Positions 35,051 through 62,765 of a stretch of DNA of 64,000 bases are shown one piece after another. The position numbers and the translations under genes are program-made. The stretch is taken from positions 806,001 to 870,000 of the forward strand of contig NZ_JADWYI010000001.1 of NCBI RefSeq assembly GCF_016904885.1. Reading direction: 5' to 3'. Each line of letters begins with the position of its first letter. Positions within the stretch are counted from its first letter, which is position 1. This DNA comes from Archangium primigenium (GTDB lineage: Bacteria; Myxococcota; Myxococcia; Myxococcales; Myxococcaceae). The notes below the pieces were generated by a model. It was not told the origin of the DNA and did no database searches. It worked only from the letters and a program-made list of their open reading frames with translations.

Positions 35051-35089
35051 GCGCAGGGCTTCGGCGTGTCACTGCTCTACACGCCCTGA
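32420..35089 (+). CDS. Kelch-repeat lipoprotein with Ig-like N-terminus (copy 2)
   Basis: This 889-residue paralogue of the preceding gene has the same plan. A signal peptide with lipobox LFLGC comes first, then two Ig-like domains (ending VTVSDGRGGTAADTVPLCVD) and a kelch propeller region rich in HTATLLPSGRVLVVGG units. The GTG at 32420 follows GAGGGGG at a good distance. Its last 21 bp overlap the end of convergent fdhD. The DNA encoding the repeat cores is nearly identical between repeats and between the two genes, so the array is recently expanded or kept alike by gene conversion. Confidence 0.8.
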   Translation: MRVRTKWTRAVWVAACWSLFLGCRAEPVTPPEPAPEPGNTPPVIESVTASALVVDAGGTLLLEARAHDADPGDTLSLAWTAAVGEFQRVSETQTHWTAPREPGVVVLTLTVTDSRGASATQSLSVRVMEGGGIILNFSPRVSALTAEPTRVSVGGSTTVVARASDPDRDVLTSAWSATGCTGTWSEPAYDPGPDTGPMNARFTVQFTARTAPTGDACDCRLEVTVSDGRGGTAADTVPLCVDAEPPPPSGAWAASGGLSWGRDAMAVSLLDSGEVLVSGGWTRLDGWAAEVYNPRTNLSLPTGPMVDPSRVHHSSTLLPSGEVLVAGGGSATAELYDPRTHVWRATGSMAVSRSFHTATRLPSGRVLVVGGDADGVPSSAEVYEPQTGLWRTVAPPTGTYSRHTATLLPSGRVLVAGSGTRAELFDPTTETWSAAAPMRTGRSRHVAVLLGSGEVLVAGGENREAGWLTDAELYDPAANAWRPTGAMTHTGGWMTPSATVLSTGKVLLADGSDTLELYDPASGTWAGKLVSERAGPSLVALASGQVVLLPSDWGFFSVQRFQPDMETFRNEGPSPWIQERLSPTVTPLATGRLLVVGSLSDVTELVDPATQRWTPTPPMSRPRQGHTATLLPSGRVLAVGGLWNQAPDDTADLYDPASGTWSPTTAPEGARAWHTATLLPSGRVLVVGGLTADFTSSASAWLYDPASGTWTATGALADKRARHTATLLASGQVLVVGGRDDDRTLATAERYDPASGTWSPAGRLSTVRARHTATRLPSGEVVVLGGSDQATEVEVYDPAAGTWSPRGELLVPHAGHSVTPMPSGDLLVIGGDPLPRTVERYTPGSGTSTALPDAATPRTDHAAVLLPSGQVWVVGGFAQGFGVSLLYTP

Positions 35090-35977
35090 CGGCGAGTCCA
35101 CGCGCAGGCGCTCGGGGTGGGTGTGGACGTTGAAGCGCCCTCCCCGCACGAAGGTGGCGAGCGTGATGCCCGCGCGCTCGGCCAGATCGATGGAGAGCGA
35201 GGTGGGCGCCGACACGCTCGCCACCAGGGGAATGCGCGCCACGGCCGCCTTCTGGAGGATGTCGAAGCCCGCGCGCCCGCTGACCACGAGCAGCGTGGGC
35301 TGGAAGGCGCCGGGCCGGGTGGCGCGCGCCGAGCGCAGGCCGTGCTCGAGCACCAGCGCCCCCACCACCTTGTCCACGGCGTTGTGGCGGCCCACGTCCT
35401 CGAAGGCGGCGAGCACGTGGCCCTCGGCGTCGAGCGCCGCGGCGGCATGCACGCCGCCGGTGTGCTCGAAGTGGGGCTGGCGGGTGCGCAGCACGTCGGG
35501 CGCGCGGGCGAGCACGGACGCGGCGAGGCCAGGCCCGGGCGGCACGGGGTGGCACGCGGCGATGAGGTCCTCCACGCTCCTTCGGCCGCACACGCCGCAG
35601 GCCGCGGTGGTGAGGGTGCCGCGCCGGCTCGCGCTCACGCGCTCCAGGTCGAGCACGAGGCCCGGGGCGGGCGTCACCTCGACGACGTTGCCGTAGCCCT
35701 CCTCGCCGGGCCGTCCGCAGTGCACCAGCCCCCCCAGGTCCTCCGCCGAGTGGATGAGGCCCTCGGAGAAGAGGAAGCCCGTGACGAGGAAGCGGTCCGC
35801 GCCGGGCATGCGCATGGTGAGGGCCACGGTGTCGCCGCTCACGCGGATGTCGAGCGGCTCCTCGAGGGCCACGGCATCGGACTCGGGCGGGGCGAGCCCC
35901 GTGTCCGGGGAGTAGCGGCGAACGGGCCGCTGGGTGACGCCGGGCGGCGGGGGACGACGGGAGGGGTCGAGGGTCAT
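35069..35977 (-). CDS. fdhD: Formate dehydrogenase sulfurtransferase FdhD
   Basis: The 302-residue protein has EEPLDIRVSGDTVALTMRMPG at the start of the domain, FLFSEGLI, the sulfur-relay cysteines in AACGVCGRR, and HFEHTGGVHAAAAL. DVGRHNAVDKVVG and VSGRAGFDILQK follow, all canonical FdhD blocks. FdhD passes sulfur from a cysteine desulfurase to the molybdenum cofactor of formate dehydrogenase. Its target is very probably the Fdh encoded at 57.6-62.8 kb. The ATG overlaps the stop of the unknown upstream gene (ATGA at 35974-35977). Confidence 0.93.
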   Translation of the reverse strand: MTLDPSRRPPPPGVTQRPVRRYSPDTGLAPPESDAVALEEPLDIRVSGDTVALTMRMPGADRFLVTGFLFSEGLIHSAEDLGGLVHCGRPGEEGYGNVVEVTPAPGLVLDLERVSASRRGTLTTAACGVCGRRSVEDLIAACHPVPPGPGLAASVLARAPDVLRTRQPHFEHTGGVHAAAALDAEGHVLAAFEDVGRHNAVDKVVGALVLEHGLRSARATRPGAFQPTLLVVSGRAGFDILQKAAVARIPLVASVSAPTSLSIDLAERAGITLATFVRGGRFNVHTHPERLRVDSPSGRVEQ

Positions 35978-37014
35978 GAGCGCTGCGGCGGCTTGGAGGC
36001 CATCGTCCAGTCGCCCTTCAGCACCTTGTTCTTGTAGAGGCGCTCCACCTCCAGCTTGCTCTGGGAATCGAGGCAGGTGTTGAAGAGGAGTTGCGCGTCG
36101 GTCGGATTGGTCCGGAAGCTCTTGTACTTGGTCAGGTTCTCGGTGTTGAGCGCCTCGAATTTCTCGGGAAAGACATTCTTCGCGATCATCATCTTGATGA
36201 TCCAAGGCCCATAGCCCTTCTCGCCCAGACGTTCACGCCGGGACTTGAGGAAGTTGTGGAGAAGCGGGAACTTCTTGGCGCCGCCTGGCGAGGTCGGGCT
36301 CGCCACGAGCCAGTTGTTCAAGTACTCCGGTTTGCGGAAGTCGTACATCGTCGGGGTCGTGTTCCGGTCGAAGGTCAACCCCCAGAACAGGCCGGACTTC
36401 GAGAAGAGCGTGGCCATCTTGTCACGGTCCTCCCGGGTATCCGTGAGTCCGAGATGGGCCTTGGCCTGACCGAGGCAGTACCACTGAATCCGGTGGGTGT
36501 ACTCGCCGTGCTCGAGCCCGACGTAGTCCTTGGCCAGGTGGGCCTGCTGGATGTGATAGGCGAAGTCTCCCGACGAGAGCTGGCCGAGGAAGCGGCTCGT
36601 GCGCGGGTGTCCATCGCCGTCCGTGTCCACCTCGCGAAAGCCCTCCTGCTGCTCGTAGCGGGTGAGGATGGTCGTCAGCAGATGCCGCGTCGGATCGGCC
36701 TCCGTGGAGAAGGCGTTGGCGCGTCCATGGGCGAAGCTCACCTTCTCCAACGCGCTGGGGTCGAGCGTCTGACCCGTGCGCTGGCGGAGCTCCTGCTGCA
36801 TGGCCTGCTCCAGATGGAGGAGCGCGTCCCAGAAGGGCGAGGAGGCATCCGCGTACAGGAATTGGGAAATCTTGACGAACGCCTTGCTGAACCAGAAGGT
36901 CGGATTGAAGGCGACCGCCTTGGCCTGGCTGTCCTGCTTCTGTCGGGCGCGCGTGTAGTTCGCGTAGGCCGTCGTGTACTCGTCCTTGATCGCTTCTTCC
37001 GTGGGCATGGTCAT
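35974..37014 (-). CDS. Unknown 346-residue protein coupled to fdhD
   Basis: I do not recognise this protein. It is hydrophilic, without signal peptide or membrane segments, and has a mixed helical composition. Notable blocks are NYTRARQKQDSQAKAVAFNP, FREVDTDGDGHPRTSRFLG (a DxDxDG calcium-loop-like element near residue 130), and EHGEYTHRIQWYCLGQAK. NTTPTMYDFRKPEYLNNWLV follows, and the C-terminus is Lys-rich. The codon composition is less GC-rich than in fdhD or the moco genes, which suggests later arrival. It overlaps fdhD by 4 bp, so it is on the same transcript. The second ATG (37008) is an alternative start. Confidence 0.55.
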   Translation of the reverse strand: MTMPTEEAIKDEYTTAYANYTRARQKQDSQAKAVAFNPTFWFSKAFVKISQFLYADASSPFWDALLHLEQAMQQELRQRTGQTLDPSALEKVSFAHGRANAFSTEADPTRHLLTTILTRYEQQEGFREVDTDGDGHPRTSRFLGQLSSGDFAYHIQQAHLAKDYVGLEHGEYTHRIQWYCLGQAKAHLGLTDTREDRDKMATLFSKSGLFWGLTFDRNTTPTMYDFRKPEYLNNWLVASPTSPGGAKKFPLLHNFLKSRRERLGEKGYGPWIIKMMIAKNVFPEKFEALNTENLTKYKSFRTNPTDAQLLFNTCLDSQSKLEVERLYKNKVLKGDWTMASKPPQRS

Positions 37015-57582: not shown

Positions 57583-58710
57583 TTAGCGCACCACCGGCAG
57601 GGGAAAGCGCAGCGGCCGTCCGTCCGACGCGTGCGTCTGGCCCGGCACGACTTCCGCCGCGCCCAGGCCCTGGCGCTGGCCCTGGAAGGTGGCCTGCGCG
57701 TCGCGCGACGAGGCCTTGCCCGCGTGGAACAGGGCGAAGCGCGTGAGCAGCGCCCCCGCCGTGCCGAGCACCGCCGCCACGCGCTCGGTCGTCTCGCGCC
57801 GCCGGCCCGGCCACAGGCCCACCCCGAGCGCCGCCGCCGTGCACACCCGCGCCGCCGTCCACAGCGCCCCCGTCCAGCCCTCGCGCAGGGGCCGCGCCAC
57901 CTCGGCCACGCGCCCGGCGTCCCGCGCCACCGCGCGCTCGGCGAGCAGCGCCGCCCCGAGCCCCACCGCGCTGAACACCCGCAGCACCCGCCGCTCCTCG
58001 GGGCGATGGGGGAGCAGCCGCAGGAGGCTGCCCGCGCCCGCCACCGACGAGGCCATGAAGAGCAGGGGCAGGGACTTGTGCACCGCCTGCCACAGGGGCA
58101 CCGCCGTGTTGGTGATGAGCACCGCCGTGTACCCGGCCAGCGGCATGCCGAGCAGCCCGCCGCCCACCGCCGCCACGTCCCCCACGTCCCCCACGCGCCC
58201 GAGCGCTCCCGTCCGCCCCGAGAGCAGCGCCGCGAGCCCGTTGAAGGCCCCCGAGCCGGAGAGGATCCACGTGCCCAGGCTCATGGGCGAGGTGGGCCGG
58301 AAGACGCGCAGCATGTACAGGAAGCGCTCGGGGCGGCCCAGGTCGTGGATGAGCAGCCCCGCGCTCACCAGGTCCCCCGCGGCGCCCACCCACCGGCAGC
58401 GGTGCCCGAGGGCCCGGAGCTTCTCGCCGCCCGCGAGCTCCGCCGCCACGCCGAGCACGCTCGCCGCGCCCGCCGTCCCGCCCACGTAGAAGTAGAGCGG
58501 CACGCTCCAGATCCACACCGGCGCCTTGAGCACGGGCTGGCCGTAGTAGCTCGGCGCGTCCGGGGACGCCGCGCCCGACTGGGTGGGCCGCGTGTGCACC
58601 CGGGCCTCGGGCGTGTCCGGCAGCTCCCGGGGCTTCACCCGCTGCTGGGCGCCCTCGCCCTCGAGCGTGCCCAAGAGGGGGTTGATGTCACGCCCATCCC
58701 GCCGCTTCAT
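57583..58710 (-). CDS. NrfD-type membrane subunit of formate dehydrogenase
   Basis: The 375-residue protein has a hydrophilic N-terminal tail of about 60 residues. About eight membrane helices follow, starting WIWSVPLYFYVGGTAGAASV. GLLIHDLGRPERFLYMLRVF and SPMSLGTWIL are classic NrfD/PsrC blocks. It would be the quinone-facing membrane anchor that takes electrons from the Fe-S subunit. Its ATG overlaps the stop of that subunit (ATGA at 58707-58710). It replaces the cytochrome b subunit found in FdnGHI-type enzymes. Confidence 0.9.
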   Translation of the reverse strand: MKRRDGRDINPLLGTLEGEGAQQRVKPRELPDTPEARVHTRPTQSGAASPDAPSYYGQPVLKAPVWIWSVPLYFYVGGTAGAASVLGVAAELAGGEKLRALGHRCRWVGAAGDLVSAGLLIHDLGRPERFLYMLRVFRPTSPMSLGTWILSGSGAFNGLAALLSGRTGALGRVGDVGDVAAVGGGLLGMPLAGYTAVLITNTAVPLWQAVHKSLPLLFMASSVAGAGSLLRLLPHRPEERRVLRVFSAVGLGAALLAERAVARDAGRVAEVARPLREGWTGALWTAARVCTAAALGVGLWPGRRRETTERVAAVLGTAGALLTRFALFHAGKASSRDAQATFQGQRQGLGAAEVVPGQTHASDGRPLRFPLPVVR

Positions 58711-59504
58711 GACCGGCCCTCCCGCCCGAGCAGCACCGCGCCGAGCGCCACCACCGCCATGCCCAGCGCGCCCCAGCCCGCGGCCTTCCACGACTCGCGG
58801 CCCTTGATCGTCGGCACCACGGGGTCGGGCGGCAGGTTGTAGACCTCGGGCTTGTCCACGAGCAGGAAGAAGGCGTTGAGCCCGCCCGTGCCCGGCTGGG
58901 CCTCCGCGTCCGCGCCGTAGAGGTACGCCGCCTCCCAGCCCTTCTCGTGCAGGGCCTTCACCCGCAGCTGGGCCCGGTCGCGCAATTCGTCCACGTCCCC
59001 GTACTGGATGGAGGCCGTGGGGCAGGCCTTGGCGCACGCGGGCGTCATGTCCTCGCCCAGCCGGTCGTAGCAGAGCGTGCACTTCCACGCCCGTCCGTCG
59101 TCCTCGCGCCGATCGATGACGCCGAAGGGACACGCCGTCACGCAGTAGCCACAGCCGTTGCACACGTCCGGCTGCACGTACACGGTGTCGAACTCGGTGC
59201 GGATGATGGCCCCGGTGGGACAGGCCTCCAGGCACCCGGCGCGCTGGCAGTGCTTGCACACGTCCGAGCTCATCAGCCACGAGAAGTCGAGCAGCCCCAC
59301 GGTCTGCCCCGGCAGCGGCACCGGCCGCTCCACGAAGGCCACGTGCCGCCAGGTGGAGGCCCCCAGGTGCCCCGTGTTGTCATAGGACATGCCCGTGAGC
59401 TGGAAGCCGTCCTCGGGCAGTTGGTTCCACTGCTTGCAGGCCACCTCGCAGGCCTTGCACCCGATGCACAGCGTGGTGTCGGTGAAGAAGCCCTTCTGTC
59501 CCAT
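58707..59504 (-). CDS. fdhB: Formate dehydrogenase iron-sulfur subunit
   Basis: The 265-residue protein carries four ferredoxin-type Cys clusters. C13-x2-C16-x2-C19-x3-C23 (TLCIGCKACEVAC) comes first, then CKHCQRAGCLEACP, CNGCGYCVTACP, and CTLCYDR with CAKACP. It ends in a single C-terminal membrane helix (AAGWGALGMAVVALGAVLLG). This matches the electron-transfer subunit of membrane-bound formate dehydrogenases. It starts 6 bp after the fdhA stop, and its ribosome-binding site AGGAGGAG overlaps the end of fdhA. Confidence 0.92.
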   Translation of the reverse strand: MGQKGFFTDTTLCIGCKACEVACKQWNQLPEDGFQLTGMSYDNTGHLGASTWRHVAFVERPVPLPGQTVGLLDFSWLMSSDVCKHCQRAGCLEACPTGAIIRTEFDTVYVQPDVCNGCGYCVTACPFGVIDRREDDGRAWKCTLCYDRLGEDMTPACAKACPTASIQYGDVDELRDRAQLRVKALHEKGWEAAYLYGADAEAQPGTGGLNAFFLLVDKPEVYNLPPDPVVPTIKGRESWKAAGWGALGMAVVALGAVLLGREGRS

Positions 59505-59510
59505 GGCGCG

Positions 59511-62500
59511 TCACTCCTCCTGCTGGGGTTGGGCCGTGGGCGGCCCCACGCCTTCCTTGTCCCGCGGCTCCTCCAACACGCCCGGAGGCAGCGCGGGCGG
59601 CGTCCACCCGAACGCCGCGCGCCGGCCCCGGCTGCGCCGCCCCGGGAGGATGCCGCACGTGAGCACCTTGGACTCCTGGATGGAGACGTTCGGGTCGGCC
59701 GTGAAGGCCGTGAGATCGTTCACCGTCTCGCCCGTCACCCGCCCCGTGTAGCTCCAGTGGTAGGGCATGCCCACCTGGTGCACCTGGCGTCCGTCCACCT
59801 GGAGTGGCCGGAAGCGCTCCGTCACCAGCACCCGGCACTCCACCTCGCCGCGCGCCGTCGTCACCGTGCACCAGCCGCCGTTCTCCAGCTCCACCTCGGC
59901 CGCCAGCTCCGGCGACACCTCGACGAACAACTCCGGCTGCAGCTCGCTGAGCCACACGAGCGAGCGCGACATGCCGCCCGCCGTGTGGTGCTCGGTGAGC
60001 CGGTAGGTGGTGAGCACGTAGGGATAGCGGGGATCCGCCCACGCCCGGTGCGCCGGGTTGTCGCGGCGCCGGTAGTCGTAGCGCGCCGGGTTGCACTGCT
60101 GCCCGTAGAGGGCGTTGGGCACCGGCGACTCCAGCGGCTCGTAGTGCGTGGGCAGGGGCCCGTCCACCATGCCGCTCGGCGCGAAGAGCCACCCCTTGCC
60201 GTCCGCCTGCATGAGGAACGGATCCGTCCCCGCGAGCGTGTCCACGCCCCACGTGTCCTTGTCCGGGACATACGAGGGCGGGCGATCCGCGATGAAGTCG
60301 GGCACGTCCTCGCCCGTCCAGCGCCCCTGGTGCGCGTCCCACCAGACGTACTTCTTGCGCTCGCTCCAGGGCCGCCCCTCGGGGTCCGCCGAGGCCCGGT
60401 TGTAGAGCAGCCGCCGGTTGGCGGGCCACGCCCAGCCCCACTCGGGCGCCACCCACGTCTGCTCCCGCCCCGGCTTGCGGCGCGCCGCCTGGTTCACCCC
60501 GTCCGCGTACACGCCCGAGTAGATCCAACAGCCGCACGTCGTGCTCCCGTCGTCGGCGAGCTCGGAGAAGCCCTTCACCGGCGCGCCATCCGCCACCCGC
60601 TGGCCGCTGATCTCCCGCAGCACCGCCTCGGCGTCCGGCTCCCCGTCCTTGAGCGGGTAGTCCCAGGTGAGGGCCCGCAGCGCCTCATCCTTCTCCTCGG
60701 GGGAGTCCGCGTAGAGCGCCTTGAGCCGCACGCCCAGGTCATGGATGAAGTGCAGGTCGCTGCGGCACTCCCCGAGCGGCTCCACCGCCTTGTGGCGCCA
60801 CTGCACCAGGCGCTGGGTGTTGGTGTACGAGCCCTCCTTCTCCGTGTGCGCCGCGCACGGGAAGAAGAACACCTCGGTTTGAATGTCCTCGGGGCGCACG
60901 TCGCCGCGCACCACCTCGGGGGCGGTGCGCCAGAACTCGGCCGTCTCGGTGAGCGCCAGGTCCCCCACCACGAGCCACTCGAGCTTCTGCAGCCCCTTGC
61001 GCTGGAGCGCGCCATTCATGGAACCCACCGCGGGGTTCTCGCCGAGCACGAAGTAGCCGCGCACCTTGCCGTCGGCCATGTCCGCCACGGTCGTCATGTG
61101 CGAGTGATCCCCCGTGAGCTTGGGCAACCAGTGGAAGCCATAGTCGTTGGCCTTCGTGGCGGCCTCGCCGTAGTACGCCTTGAGCAGCGAGACGATGTAC
61201 TTGGGGAAGTTGCTCCACCAGCCGCTGTCCGCCTGGTTGTTGTGCACGTACTGCGCGAAGCGCTGGGCGTCGGGCGCGTGCGGCATGGGGATGTAGCCGG
61301 GCAGCAGGTTGTAGAGCGTGGGGATGTCGCTCGAGCCCTGGATGGTGGCGTGGCCGCGCAGGGCCATGATGCCGCCGCCGGGCCGCCCCATGTTGCCGAG
61401 CAAGAGCTGGATGATGGCCGCGGTGCGGATGTACTGCACTCCCACCGAGTGCTGCGTCCAGCCCACCGCGTAGGCGAACGCGCTCGTGCGCTCGCGGCCC
61501 GAGTTGTCACACAGCGTCCGCGCCACCTGGAGGAACAGGGGCTCGGGCACCCCGCAGATGCGCGCGACCACGGCTGGCGTGTAGCGCGCGAAGTGCCGCT
61601 TGAGCACCTGGAAGACACAGCGCGGATGCTTCAGCGTCGGGTCGCGCTTCACCTCGGTGATGTGCGGGCCGCGCGGCTTGCCGTCACTCCCGGCGCCCGG
61701 CTCGGCGAAGATCTCCTTGTGGCCCGCGGCGGGCACCACGCCGTCCAGGCCCTCGTACTGCCACGTGTGGGGCGTGTAGCGGCCCTTCTCCGGGTCATAG
61801 CCGCTGAAGAGCCCGTCCAGCTCCTCCGTGTCCTGGTAGTCCTCGCCCACGAGCGTGGACGCGTTGGTGTAGTGCACCACGTAGTCGTGGAAGTAGCGCT
61901 CCTGCTCCAGGATGTAGTGGACCAGGCCCCCGAGGAACGCGATGTCCGTGCCCACGCGGATGGGCACATGCACGTCCGCCACCGCGCTCGTGCGGCTGTA
62001 GCGCGGATCCACGTGGATGACCTGGGCGCCCCGCGCCTTGGCCTCCATCACCCACTGGAAACCCACCGGGTGACACTCCGCCATGTTGCTGCCCTGGATG
62101 ATGATGCAGTCGGAGTTCGCCAGGTCTTGCTGGAAGTTGGTGGCACCGCCTCGACCGAACGTGATCCCCAGACCGGGGATCGTGGAGGAGTGTCATATTC
62201 GAGCCTGGTTCTCCACCTGGACGATGCCGAGGCCCGCCGTGAACAGCTTCTTGAGGAGGTAGTTCTCCTCGTTGTCCAGGGTGGCGCCGCCCAGGTGCGC
62301 GATGCCGAGCGTGCGATTGACCACCTCGCCCGCGTCCGTCCTGGCCTGCCACGTGGCGTCGCGCGTCTTCTTCACGCGCTCGGCCACCATGTCCATGGCC
62401 TTGTGCAGGGGGATGCGCTCCCACGCCGCCGCGCCCGGACGCCGGTAGAGCACGTGGTGCTCGCGGTGCGTGCCGGTGACGAGCTGGAAGCTGGCGCTGC

Positions 62501-62765
62501 CCTTGGGACACAGCCGACCGCGCGAGATGGGCGAGTCCTCGTCGCCCTCGATGTCGAGGATCTTCCCGTCCTTCACGTACACGCGCTGGCCACAGCCCAC
62601 CGCGCAGTAGGGACAGATGGACTGGACGACCTTGTCCGCCCGGGCGGTGCGCGGCGCGAGCGTCTCGCTGCGCTCGGTCATCGCCGTGTGGCCGAGTCCC
62701 AGCGCGTCCCGGTGGCGCAACTGCCGCAAGAGGGGCCAGCGAGACAGCCGCTTGAAGATACCCAT
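59511..62765 (-). CDS. fdhA: Selenocysteine-containing formate dehydrogenase catalytic subunit (UGA read as Sec)
   Basis: The gene reads as one 1084-residue protein if the in-frame TGA at 62195-62193 (codon 191) is decoded as selenocysteine. The N-terminal part has the Fe4S4 site C51, C54, C58, C86 (CPYCAVGC ... LCPKG). The sequence across the TGA is ENQARI-U-HSSTIPGLGITFGR, the position of the active-site Sec in FdhF/FdnG-type enzymes. After it come IIIQGSNMAECHPVGF and the full molybdopterin domains, ending in the dinucleotide-binding region. It oxidises formate using bis-MGD, tungsten or molybdenum, and selenium. No twin-arginine signal is visible, so it probably faces the cytosol. GGAGGAG precedes the ATG. 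A standard gene caller would split it in two. Confidence 0.93.
62163..62181 (-). promoter_or_regulatory. SECIS-like hairpin in fdhA
   Basis: On the minus strand GATCCCC-GGTCT-GGGGATC forms a perfect 7-bp stem with a five-base loop, beginning 11 bases after the TGA. The loop GGUCU is the same as the SelB-contacting apical loop of the Escherichia coli fdhF SECIS. It should recruit SelB and Sec-tRNA at this UGA. Confidence 0.8.

What the first reader, a model, noticed from the sequence alone, without database searches (positions are those of the whole stretch)
62163..62195. In-frame UGA with SECIS hairpin: formate dehydrogenase is a selenoprotein
The frame before the TGA ends in ENQARI and continues in the same frame with HSSTIPGLGITFGR, exactly where FdhF/FdnG-type enzymes carry selenocysteine. 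Eleven bases later GATCCCC/GGGGATC with loop GGUCU forms a SECIS-like hairpin. A gene caller would report two broken genes and miss the enzyme. It also implies that the genome has selA, selB, selC and selD, none of which is in this window.
Basis: partly seen in the sequence, partly recalled or inferred. Interest (0 to 1): 0.75.

Follow-up and report, generated by a model that had tools for sequence, protein, structure and literature searches.

The report
Selenium-containing formate dehydrogenase in a myxobacterium
A gene that looks broken by a stop signal is really one whole formate-oxidising enzyme in which that stop is read as the rare amino acid selenocysteine; bacteria are well known to do this, so the finding is right but ordinary.

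Summary
One minus-strand frame (59511-62765) encodes a 1084-residue formate dehydrogenase alpha subunit interrupted by one TGA (62193-62195, residue 191). A hairpin with loop GGUCU (62163-62181) starts 11 bases later. In 80 relatives the site codon is TGA 70, TAG 6, TGC 4; in the 29 fetched (best-scoring) loci of the window's own order it is TGA 29 of 29. Hairpin positions pair in 95.4% of cells among 72 distinct TGA/TAG sequences, against 53.6% among four TGC sequences. The genome carries selA, selB, selD and tRNA-Sec, all outside the window. An iron-sulfur gene and an nrfD-type gene follow directly, so it is most likely a formate:quinone oxidoreductase (inferred). Selenocysteine FdhA is the most widespread bacterial selenoprotein in print; this is a new member of a known kind. 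Mildly interesting: of 145 genomes of the order 128 have selA over cut-off, but only 56 have a match to this enzyme at 60% identity or more, so others may keep the machinery for something else. Selenium in the protein was not measured.

The parts
59511..62765 (-). fdhA: formate dehydrogenase alpha subunit, 1084 residues with Sec at 191; start ATG 62763-62765, a GGAGG about 9 bases upstream (read directly)
   Evidence: NCBIfam NF041513 1843.2 bits (cut-off 1400) and TIGR01553 1003.7 bits (cut-off 814.2); relatives in the Protein Data Bank
62193..62195 (-). in-frame TGA read as selenocysteine (U191)
   Evidence: falls on the non-standard residue X of 1h0h; TGA 70 / TAG 6 / TGC 4 of 80 relatives, TGA 29 of 29 fetched own-order loci
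62163..62181 (-). bacterial SECIS hairpin GATCCCC-GGTCT-GGGGATC, starting 11 bases after the TGA
58707..59504 (-). fdhB-type iron-sulfur subunit, 265 aa, 6 bases after fdhA
   Evidence: Pfam Fer4 families; TIGR01582 FDH-beta 183.1 bits, under its cut-off of 334.7
57583..58710 (-). NrfD-type membrane subunit, 375 aa; its start overlaps the end of fdhB by 4 bases
   Evidence: Pfam PF03916 46.9 bits, cut-off 25.8; no NCBIfam match
35069..36205 (-). fdhD/narQ-type ORF (domain match at 35105-35866), about 21 kb from the operon; its true start is not settled
   Evidence: PF02634 204 bits, cut-off 27.2, at G000:C1:841105-841866; ORF

Best explanation
It is a selenocysteine-containing formate dehydrogenase alpha subunit. 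The ribosome reads the UGA at codon 191 as selenocysteine: SelD makes selenophosphate, SelA converts seryl-tRNA-Sec to selenocysteyl-tRNA-Sec, and SelB carries this tRNA to the ribosome while holding the SECIS hairpin just after the UGA (inferred from the known pathway; the genes and the hairpin are shown here). The Sec residue would bind the molybdenum or tungsten of the cofactor and take part in oxidising formate to CO2 (inferred). Electrons would pass through the iron-sulfur clusters to a quinone at the NrfD-type membrane subunit (inferred from gene content). FdhD, also encoded in the window, would help mature the cofactor (inferred).
For: One open frame across the TGA with family scores far over cut-off. 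The TGA falls on the non-standard residue X of 1h0h (selenocysteine, recalled), and several other hits are named selenocysteine-containing. Site codon TGA or TAG in 76 of 80 relatives and TGC in the other 4; TGA in 29 of 29 fetched own-order loci. Hairpin cells paired: 481 of 504 (95.4%) in 72 distinct TGA/TAG 45-mers, 0 of 2000 shuffles as high, against 15 of 28 (53.6%) in the 4 TGC sequences; 4 of 7 pairs with changes on both sides on a 37-row alignment. selA, selB, selD and tRNA-Sec in the genome. Of 145 genomes of the order, the 56 with a match of 60% identity or more all have selA over cut-off, and none of the 17 genomes without it has such a match (my tally of the rows; Fisher p 2.5e-4). 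53 of the same 56 have tRNA-Sec. fdhB- and nrfD-type genes lie beside fdhA in 29 of 29 fetched own-order loci and 60 of 80 others.
Against: No protein or selenium measurement. Hairpin energy is not exceptional; Rfam SECIS_3 is under threshold. The outermost stem pair is not conserved: 22 of 72 distinct Sec-type sequences lack it, 19 of 37. FdhB is under the FDH-beta cut-off. tRNA-Sec was not found by the stricter order-wide search in 3 of the 56 genomes, G010, G012 and G025. G002 (61% complete) has a 44% relative with a TGA inside but no selA match. Outside the 29 fetched loci one search reports only that one TGA lies inside the match, not where; in G092 a TGA is also reported in the stretch 374-1061, away from the Sec site.
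Confidence: 0.97

Rival explanations
1. A sequencing error or recent nonsense mutation turned TGC/TGT into TGA in an ordinary cysteine enzyme.
For: Four of 80 relatives carry TGC at the site.
Against: TGA in 29 of 29 fetched own-order loci and 70 of 80 others; the hairpin is kept with a stop codon and decayed in the four TGC sequences; the Sec machinery is present.
Confidence: 0.01
2. The TGA ends a real short protein and a second gene starts downstream; the two halves act as separate subunits.
For: Two ORFs can be listed, 62193-62765 and, from the ATG at 62082-62084, 59511-62084.
Against: The frame runs on unbroken in the four relatives with TGC; the stretch after the TGA that a downstream start would lose is conserved in the relatives looked at; the hairpin would have no role.
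Confidence: 0.01
3. UGA is read as an ordinary amino acid by a suppressor or a changed genetic code, not as selenocysteine.
For: Not formally excluded without protein data.
Against: The genome has tRNA-Sec with anticodon UCA plus selA, selB and selD; the TAG relatives are all Geodermatophilaceae, for which tRNA-Sec with anticodon CUA is in print (PMC5330540); fdhA itself and fdhB end at TGA.
Confidence: 0.01

Closest known systems
Formate dehydrogenase of NCBIfam NF041513, and the Sec-containing FDH of Streptomyces incarnatus (PMC4498112, whole text read)
   Same: Family score over cut-off; the paper reports an in-frame UGA followed by a SECIS element and selA, selB, selC, selD. That the S. 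incarnatus protein belongs to NF041513 was not tested; Streptomyces rows are among the relatives
   Different: In S. incarnatus the sel genes are a cluster near the FDH gene; here they lie at four distant places of one contig
E. coli FDH-N (FdnGHI)
   Same: Alpha subunit over the TIGR01553 cut-off; E. coli nitrate-inducible enzyme 1kqf matched
   Different: No twin-arginine leader seen at the N terminus (by eye); NrfD-type third gene in place of the cytochrome b subunit FdnI (recalled)
FqoABC, tentatively assigned formate:quinone oxidoreductase (PMC8076601, passages read)
   Same: FdnGH-like A and B subunits with an NrfD-like subunit; reported for Actinobacteria and 12 Deltaproteobacteria species among others
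   Different: The main text has no occurrence of 'selenocysteine' or 'myxo'; the complex is called uncharacterised there
Solved selenocysteine-containing FdhA (8cm4, 6sdr and others) and 1h0h
   Same: Aligned over residues 35-1036 (8cm4); Sec site in the same column in 1h0h
   Different: More distant than NF041513; sources and periplasmic location of the solved enzymes are recalled, not from a call

Membership tests
Bacterial selenoprotein FdhA | In-frame UGA at the active-site position, with homologous sequence on both sides | tested here: met
Bacterial selenoprotein FdhA | SECIS hairpin directly downstream, kept by covariation | tested here: met
   outermost pair not conserved
Bacterial selenoprotein FdhA | selA, selB, selC, selD in the genome | tested here: met
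Bacterial selenoprotein FdhA | Selenium in the protein | not testable with these tools
   needs mass spectrometry or 75Se labelling
NF041513 formate_DH_Act | Score over curated cut-off | tested here: met
   1843.2 against 1400 bits
FDH-N complex (FdnGHI) | Alpha subunit TIGR01553 over cut-off | tested here: met
   1003.7 against 814.2 bits
FDH-N complex (FdnGHI) | Beta subunit TIGR01582 over cut-off | tested here: not met
   183.1 against 334.7 bits
FDH-N complex (FdnGHI) | Cytochrome b gamma subunit (FdnI) as third gene | tested here: not met
   the third gene matches PF03916 NrfD only; the rest of the genome was not searched for FdnI
FqoABC | FdnGH-like A and B with an NrfD-like C side by side | tested here: met
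   kept in 29 of 29 fetched own-order loci
FqoABC | Formate:quinone activity; 8 transmembrane helices in C | not tested
   no assay; no helix prediction run
Rfam SECIS_3 | Gathering score 63 bits | tested here: not met
   22.3 bits, E 0.016

The most novel reading that the evidence does not exclude
Myxobacteria keep a dispersed, unlinked Sec system for more than this enzyme: of 128 genomes of the order with selA over cut-off, 72 lack a match to this FdhA at 60% identity or more and 54 lack any match at E 1e-100 (tally), so an undescribed or uncatalogued selenoprotein would keep the trait in many of these soil predators, with FdhA as a selenium-dependent formate:quinone oxidoreductase in the rest.
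Probability: 0.25. Interest if true: 0.4.

Novelty: new member of a known kind. Interest (0 to 1): 0.13.

Why it matters
It corrects an annotation: one 1084-residue enzyme in place of two fragments, and a likely selenium requirement for formate oxidation in this strain. The family also offers a natural control for the SECIS: the hairpin pairs when the codon is UGA or UAG and has decayed in the four sequences with UGC. None of this changes what is known about selenoproteins.

Tried and rejected
Folding energy as proof of the hairpin: not significant by itself. Rfam: SECIS_3 under threshold. A covariance model of the FDH SECIS (R1, from 37 of the 110 sequences, all TGA) searched over the own genome found this site at 69.5 bits; the only other match was 19.9 bits, E 1.08, taken as chance and not looked into (150 of 13895 first-look candidates were scored). 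Other selenoproteins in the own genome: Rdx/SelW family no match; 15 AhpC-TSA matches, none with a stop inside; SelD has no stop inside and reads Cys at the usual Sec/Cys site by eye. Other Sec families were not searched, so more selenoproteins are not excluded.

Literature, 9 searches of the held open-access library: myxobacteria + selenoprotein + formate dehydrogenase, selenocysteine + Myxococcus + SECIS and selenocysteine + formate dehydrogenase + Myxococcales returned 0 papers each; Myxococcus xanthus + selenoprotein 7 and selenocysteine + Stigmatella 2, not on the subject as far as titles and abstract starts show. PMC1794560 (passages) lists Anaeromyxobacter dehalogenans with 3 FdhA among 11 selenoproteins, so Sec FdhA in this group of bacteria is in print. 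The library lacks most subscription journals.

Scripts: the first one for reading the codon had a wrong motif and found nothing; one search missed 5 of 80 loci by a too strict motif; one search read those 5, and read all 80 plus 29 plus the window.

Full report
What is there. The minus strand of the window carries one frame, 59511-62765, with a start ATG and a GGAGG about 9 bases upstream (read directly), one internal TGA at 62193-62195 and a terminal TGA. Read with U at the internal TGA it gives 1084 residues, 120.7 kDa with Cys in place of Sec. It scores 1843.2 bits against NCBIfam NF041513 (formate dehydrogenase; cut-off 1400) and 1003.7 bits against TIGR01553 (FDH-N alpha; cut-off 814.2). 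Pfam finds the Fe4S4, molybdopterin and dinucleotide-binding domains. Against solved structures, residue 191 falls on the X, a non-standard residue (selenocysteine, recalled), of 1h0h; other hits such as 8cm4 and 6sdr are named selenocysteine-containing. G+C by codon position is nearly the same on both sides of the TGA.

The hairpin. Eleven bases after the TGA, GATCCCC-GGTCT-GGGGATC lies at 62163-62181. Folding energy is not exceptional against shuffles (z -0.78, -1.19, -1.35 for three stretches) and Rfam SECIS_3 is matched only at 22.3 bits, under its gathering score. Of 71 GGTCT sites in the window this one has a stem of 7 and the other 70 have 3 or fewer. The comparative evidence is strong. 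In the 72 with TGA or TAG, 481 of 504 stem cells pair (95.4%), against 58.1% and 59.5% when the partner is slid by one base either way; none of 2000 shuffles reached it. The fourth pair is C-G in 30, G-C in 20, U-A in 12, U-G in 8 and G-U in 1, unpaired in 1. The outermost pair is not conserved: it is missing in 22 of 72. In the 4 with TGC, 15 of 28 cells pair (53.6%) and the loop varies. The 37-row alignment A1 (37 of the 110 sequences, all TGA, chosen by me for diversity) gives 92.3% paired cells and 4 of 7 pairs with changes on both sides; 3 of 500 shuffles reach the latter, 0 of 500 the former; two pairs never vary. Shuffles do not allow for relatedness. So the hairpin is kept where the codon is a stop and has decayed in the four cysteine sequences.

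The codon in relatives. TGA in 70, TAG in 6 and TGC in 4 of 80; TGA in 29 of 29 fetched own-order loci. For the rows at 60% identity or more that span the site and were not fetched, one TGA inside is reported, position not given. All 6 TAG rows are Geodermatophilaceae and form one group; the 4 TGC rows form another (SH-aLRT 100 each; quick tree of 89 rows: 80 relatives, 8 of the 29 own-order loci and the window). UAG for selenocysteine in Geodermatophilaceae, formate dehydrogenase included, is in print (PMC5330540, section 17 and passages read). The window's protein groups with two rows of its genus and two of its family. That the strain is a myxobacterium is inferred from the nearest named rows (Hyalangium, Myxococcus, Corallococcus).

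The machinery. The own genome (9.49 Mb, 3 contigs, 98.6% complete) has selB (325.7 bits, cut-off 242.25), tRNA-Sec (66.9 bits, gathering score 47; tRNA-SeC with anticodon tca by ARAGORN), selA (557.7 bits, cut-off 267.9) and selD (379.6 bits, cut-off 125). The tRNA family is over its score in 5 of 14 control genomes, selA in 1, selB in 2 and selD in 2 of 14. The genes lie near 8.82, 4.72, 6.55 and 3.32 Mb of contig C1, far from each other and from the window (0.806-0.870 Mb). An fdhD-type domain lies inside the window at 35105-35866.

Distribution in the order. Of 145 genomes, 75 match the protein at E 1e-100 or better; by my count of the rows, 56 (the own genome included) have a match of 60% identity or more. 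selA is over its cut-off in 128 of 145, tRNA-Sec over its score in 118 of 145 (stricter filters). All 56 have selA over cut-off, and none of the 17 genomes without it has such a match (Fisher p 2.5e-4; the genomes are related, so this is not a true probability). 53 of the 56 have tRNA-Sec; G010, G012 and G025 do not in that search. G002 (61% complete) has a 44% match with a TGA inside and tRNA-Sec but no selA match. Conversely 72 of the 128 selA genomes lack a 60% match and 54 lack any match at E 1e-100. At most 5 candidates per genome were scored, so more distant formate dehydrogenases may have been missed. What keeps the trait in those genomes is open. In the own genome the SECIS model found no second convincing site, and the Rdx and AhpC-TSA families gave no candidate.

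Neighbours and mechanism. fdhA is followed after 6 bases by an iron-sulfur subunit (58707-59504) and, overlapping that by 4 bases, an NrfD-type membrane protein (57583-58710). The iron-sulfur subunit is under the FDH-beta cut-off (183.1 against 334.7 bits). Both partners lie beside fdhA in 29 of 29 fetched own-order loci and 60 of 80 others; of the 20 without, 14 are Actinomadura (14 of 16 loci of that genus) and 6 are contigs of under 10 kb (distance only, strand not checked). No twin-arginine leader is visible by eye. The gene content resembles FqoABC, a tentatively assigned formate:quinone oxidoreductase (PMC8076601, passages read). That it oxidises formate and reduces quinone is inferred, not shown.

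Known or new. FdhA is called the most widely distributed bacterial selenoprotein (PMC13188914, passages) and one of the two most widespread (PMC1794560 and PMC5029168, passages); Anaeromyxobacter dehalogenans is listed with three (PMC1794560); a Streptomyces selenocysteine formate dehydrogenase with SECIS and sel genes is described (PMC4498112, whole text). The finding is true, well supported and ordinary.

Noticed in passing
145 genomes of the window's order: selA is over cut-off in 128 genomes but a match to this FdhA at 60% identity or more is in only 56; 12 genomes of one genus (g19) have selA and tRNA-Sec without any match at E 1e-100, so another selenoprotein may keep the trait.
   Followed up: partly
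L050, L071, L082, L100, L101, L105: Geodermatophilaceae carry TAG at the Sec codon with the SECIS hairpin kept; this use of UAG is already in print.
   Followed up: yes
L055, L061, L063, L070: Four actinobacterial relatives have TGC and a decayed hairpin; one group in the quick tree.
   Followed up: yes
L030: A record labelled Comamonas sp. KCTC 72670 holds a gene that groups inside Myxococcus rows; the label is probably wrong.
   Followed up: no
window 35069-36205 (-): fdhD/narQ-type ORF, about 21 kb from the fdh operon.
   Followed up: partly
window, about residue 180 of fdhA (59511-62765, -): The window's protein has one extra Gly (LFTAGLGI) where the six relatives printed read LFTALGI, LFTSLGI, LYTSLGI or LFTTLGM; the frame is kept.
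   Followed up: no
L044, L046, L048, L052 and ten more Actinomadura loci: No fdhB/nrfD-type gene was found beside fdhA in 14 of 16 Actinomadura loci; some contigs end soon after the gene. Another electron partner is possible.
   Followed up: no
G092:C121:16975-19035: One search reports a TGA inside this fdhA stretch (query 374-1061), away from the Sec site, in a fragmented genome; not looked into.
   Followed up: no
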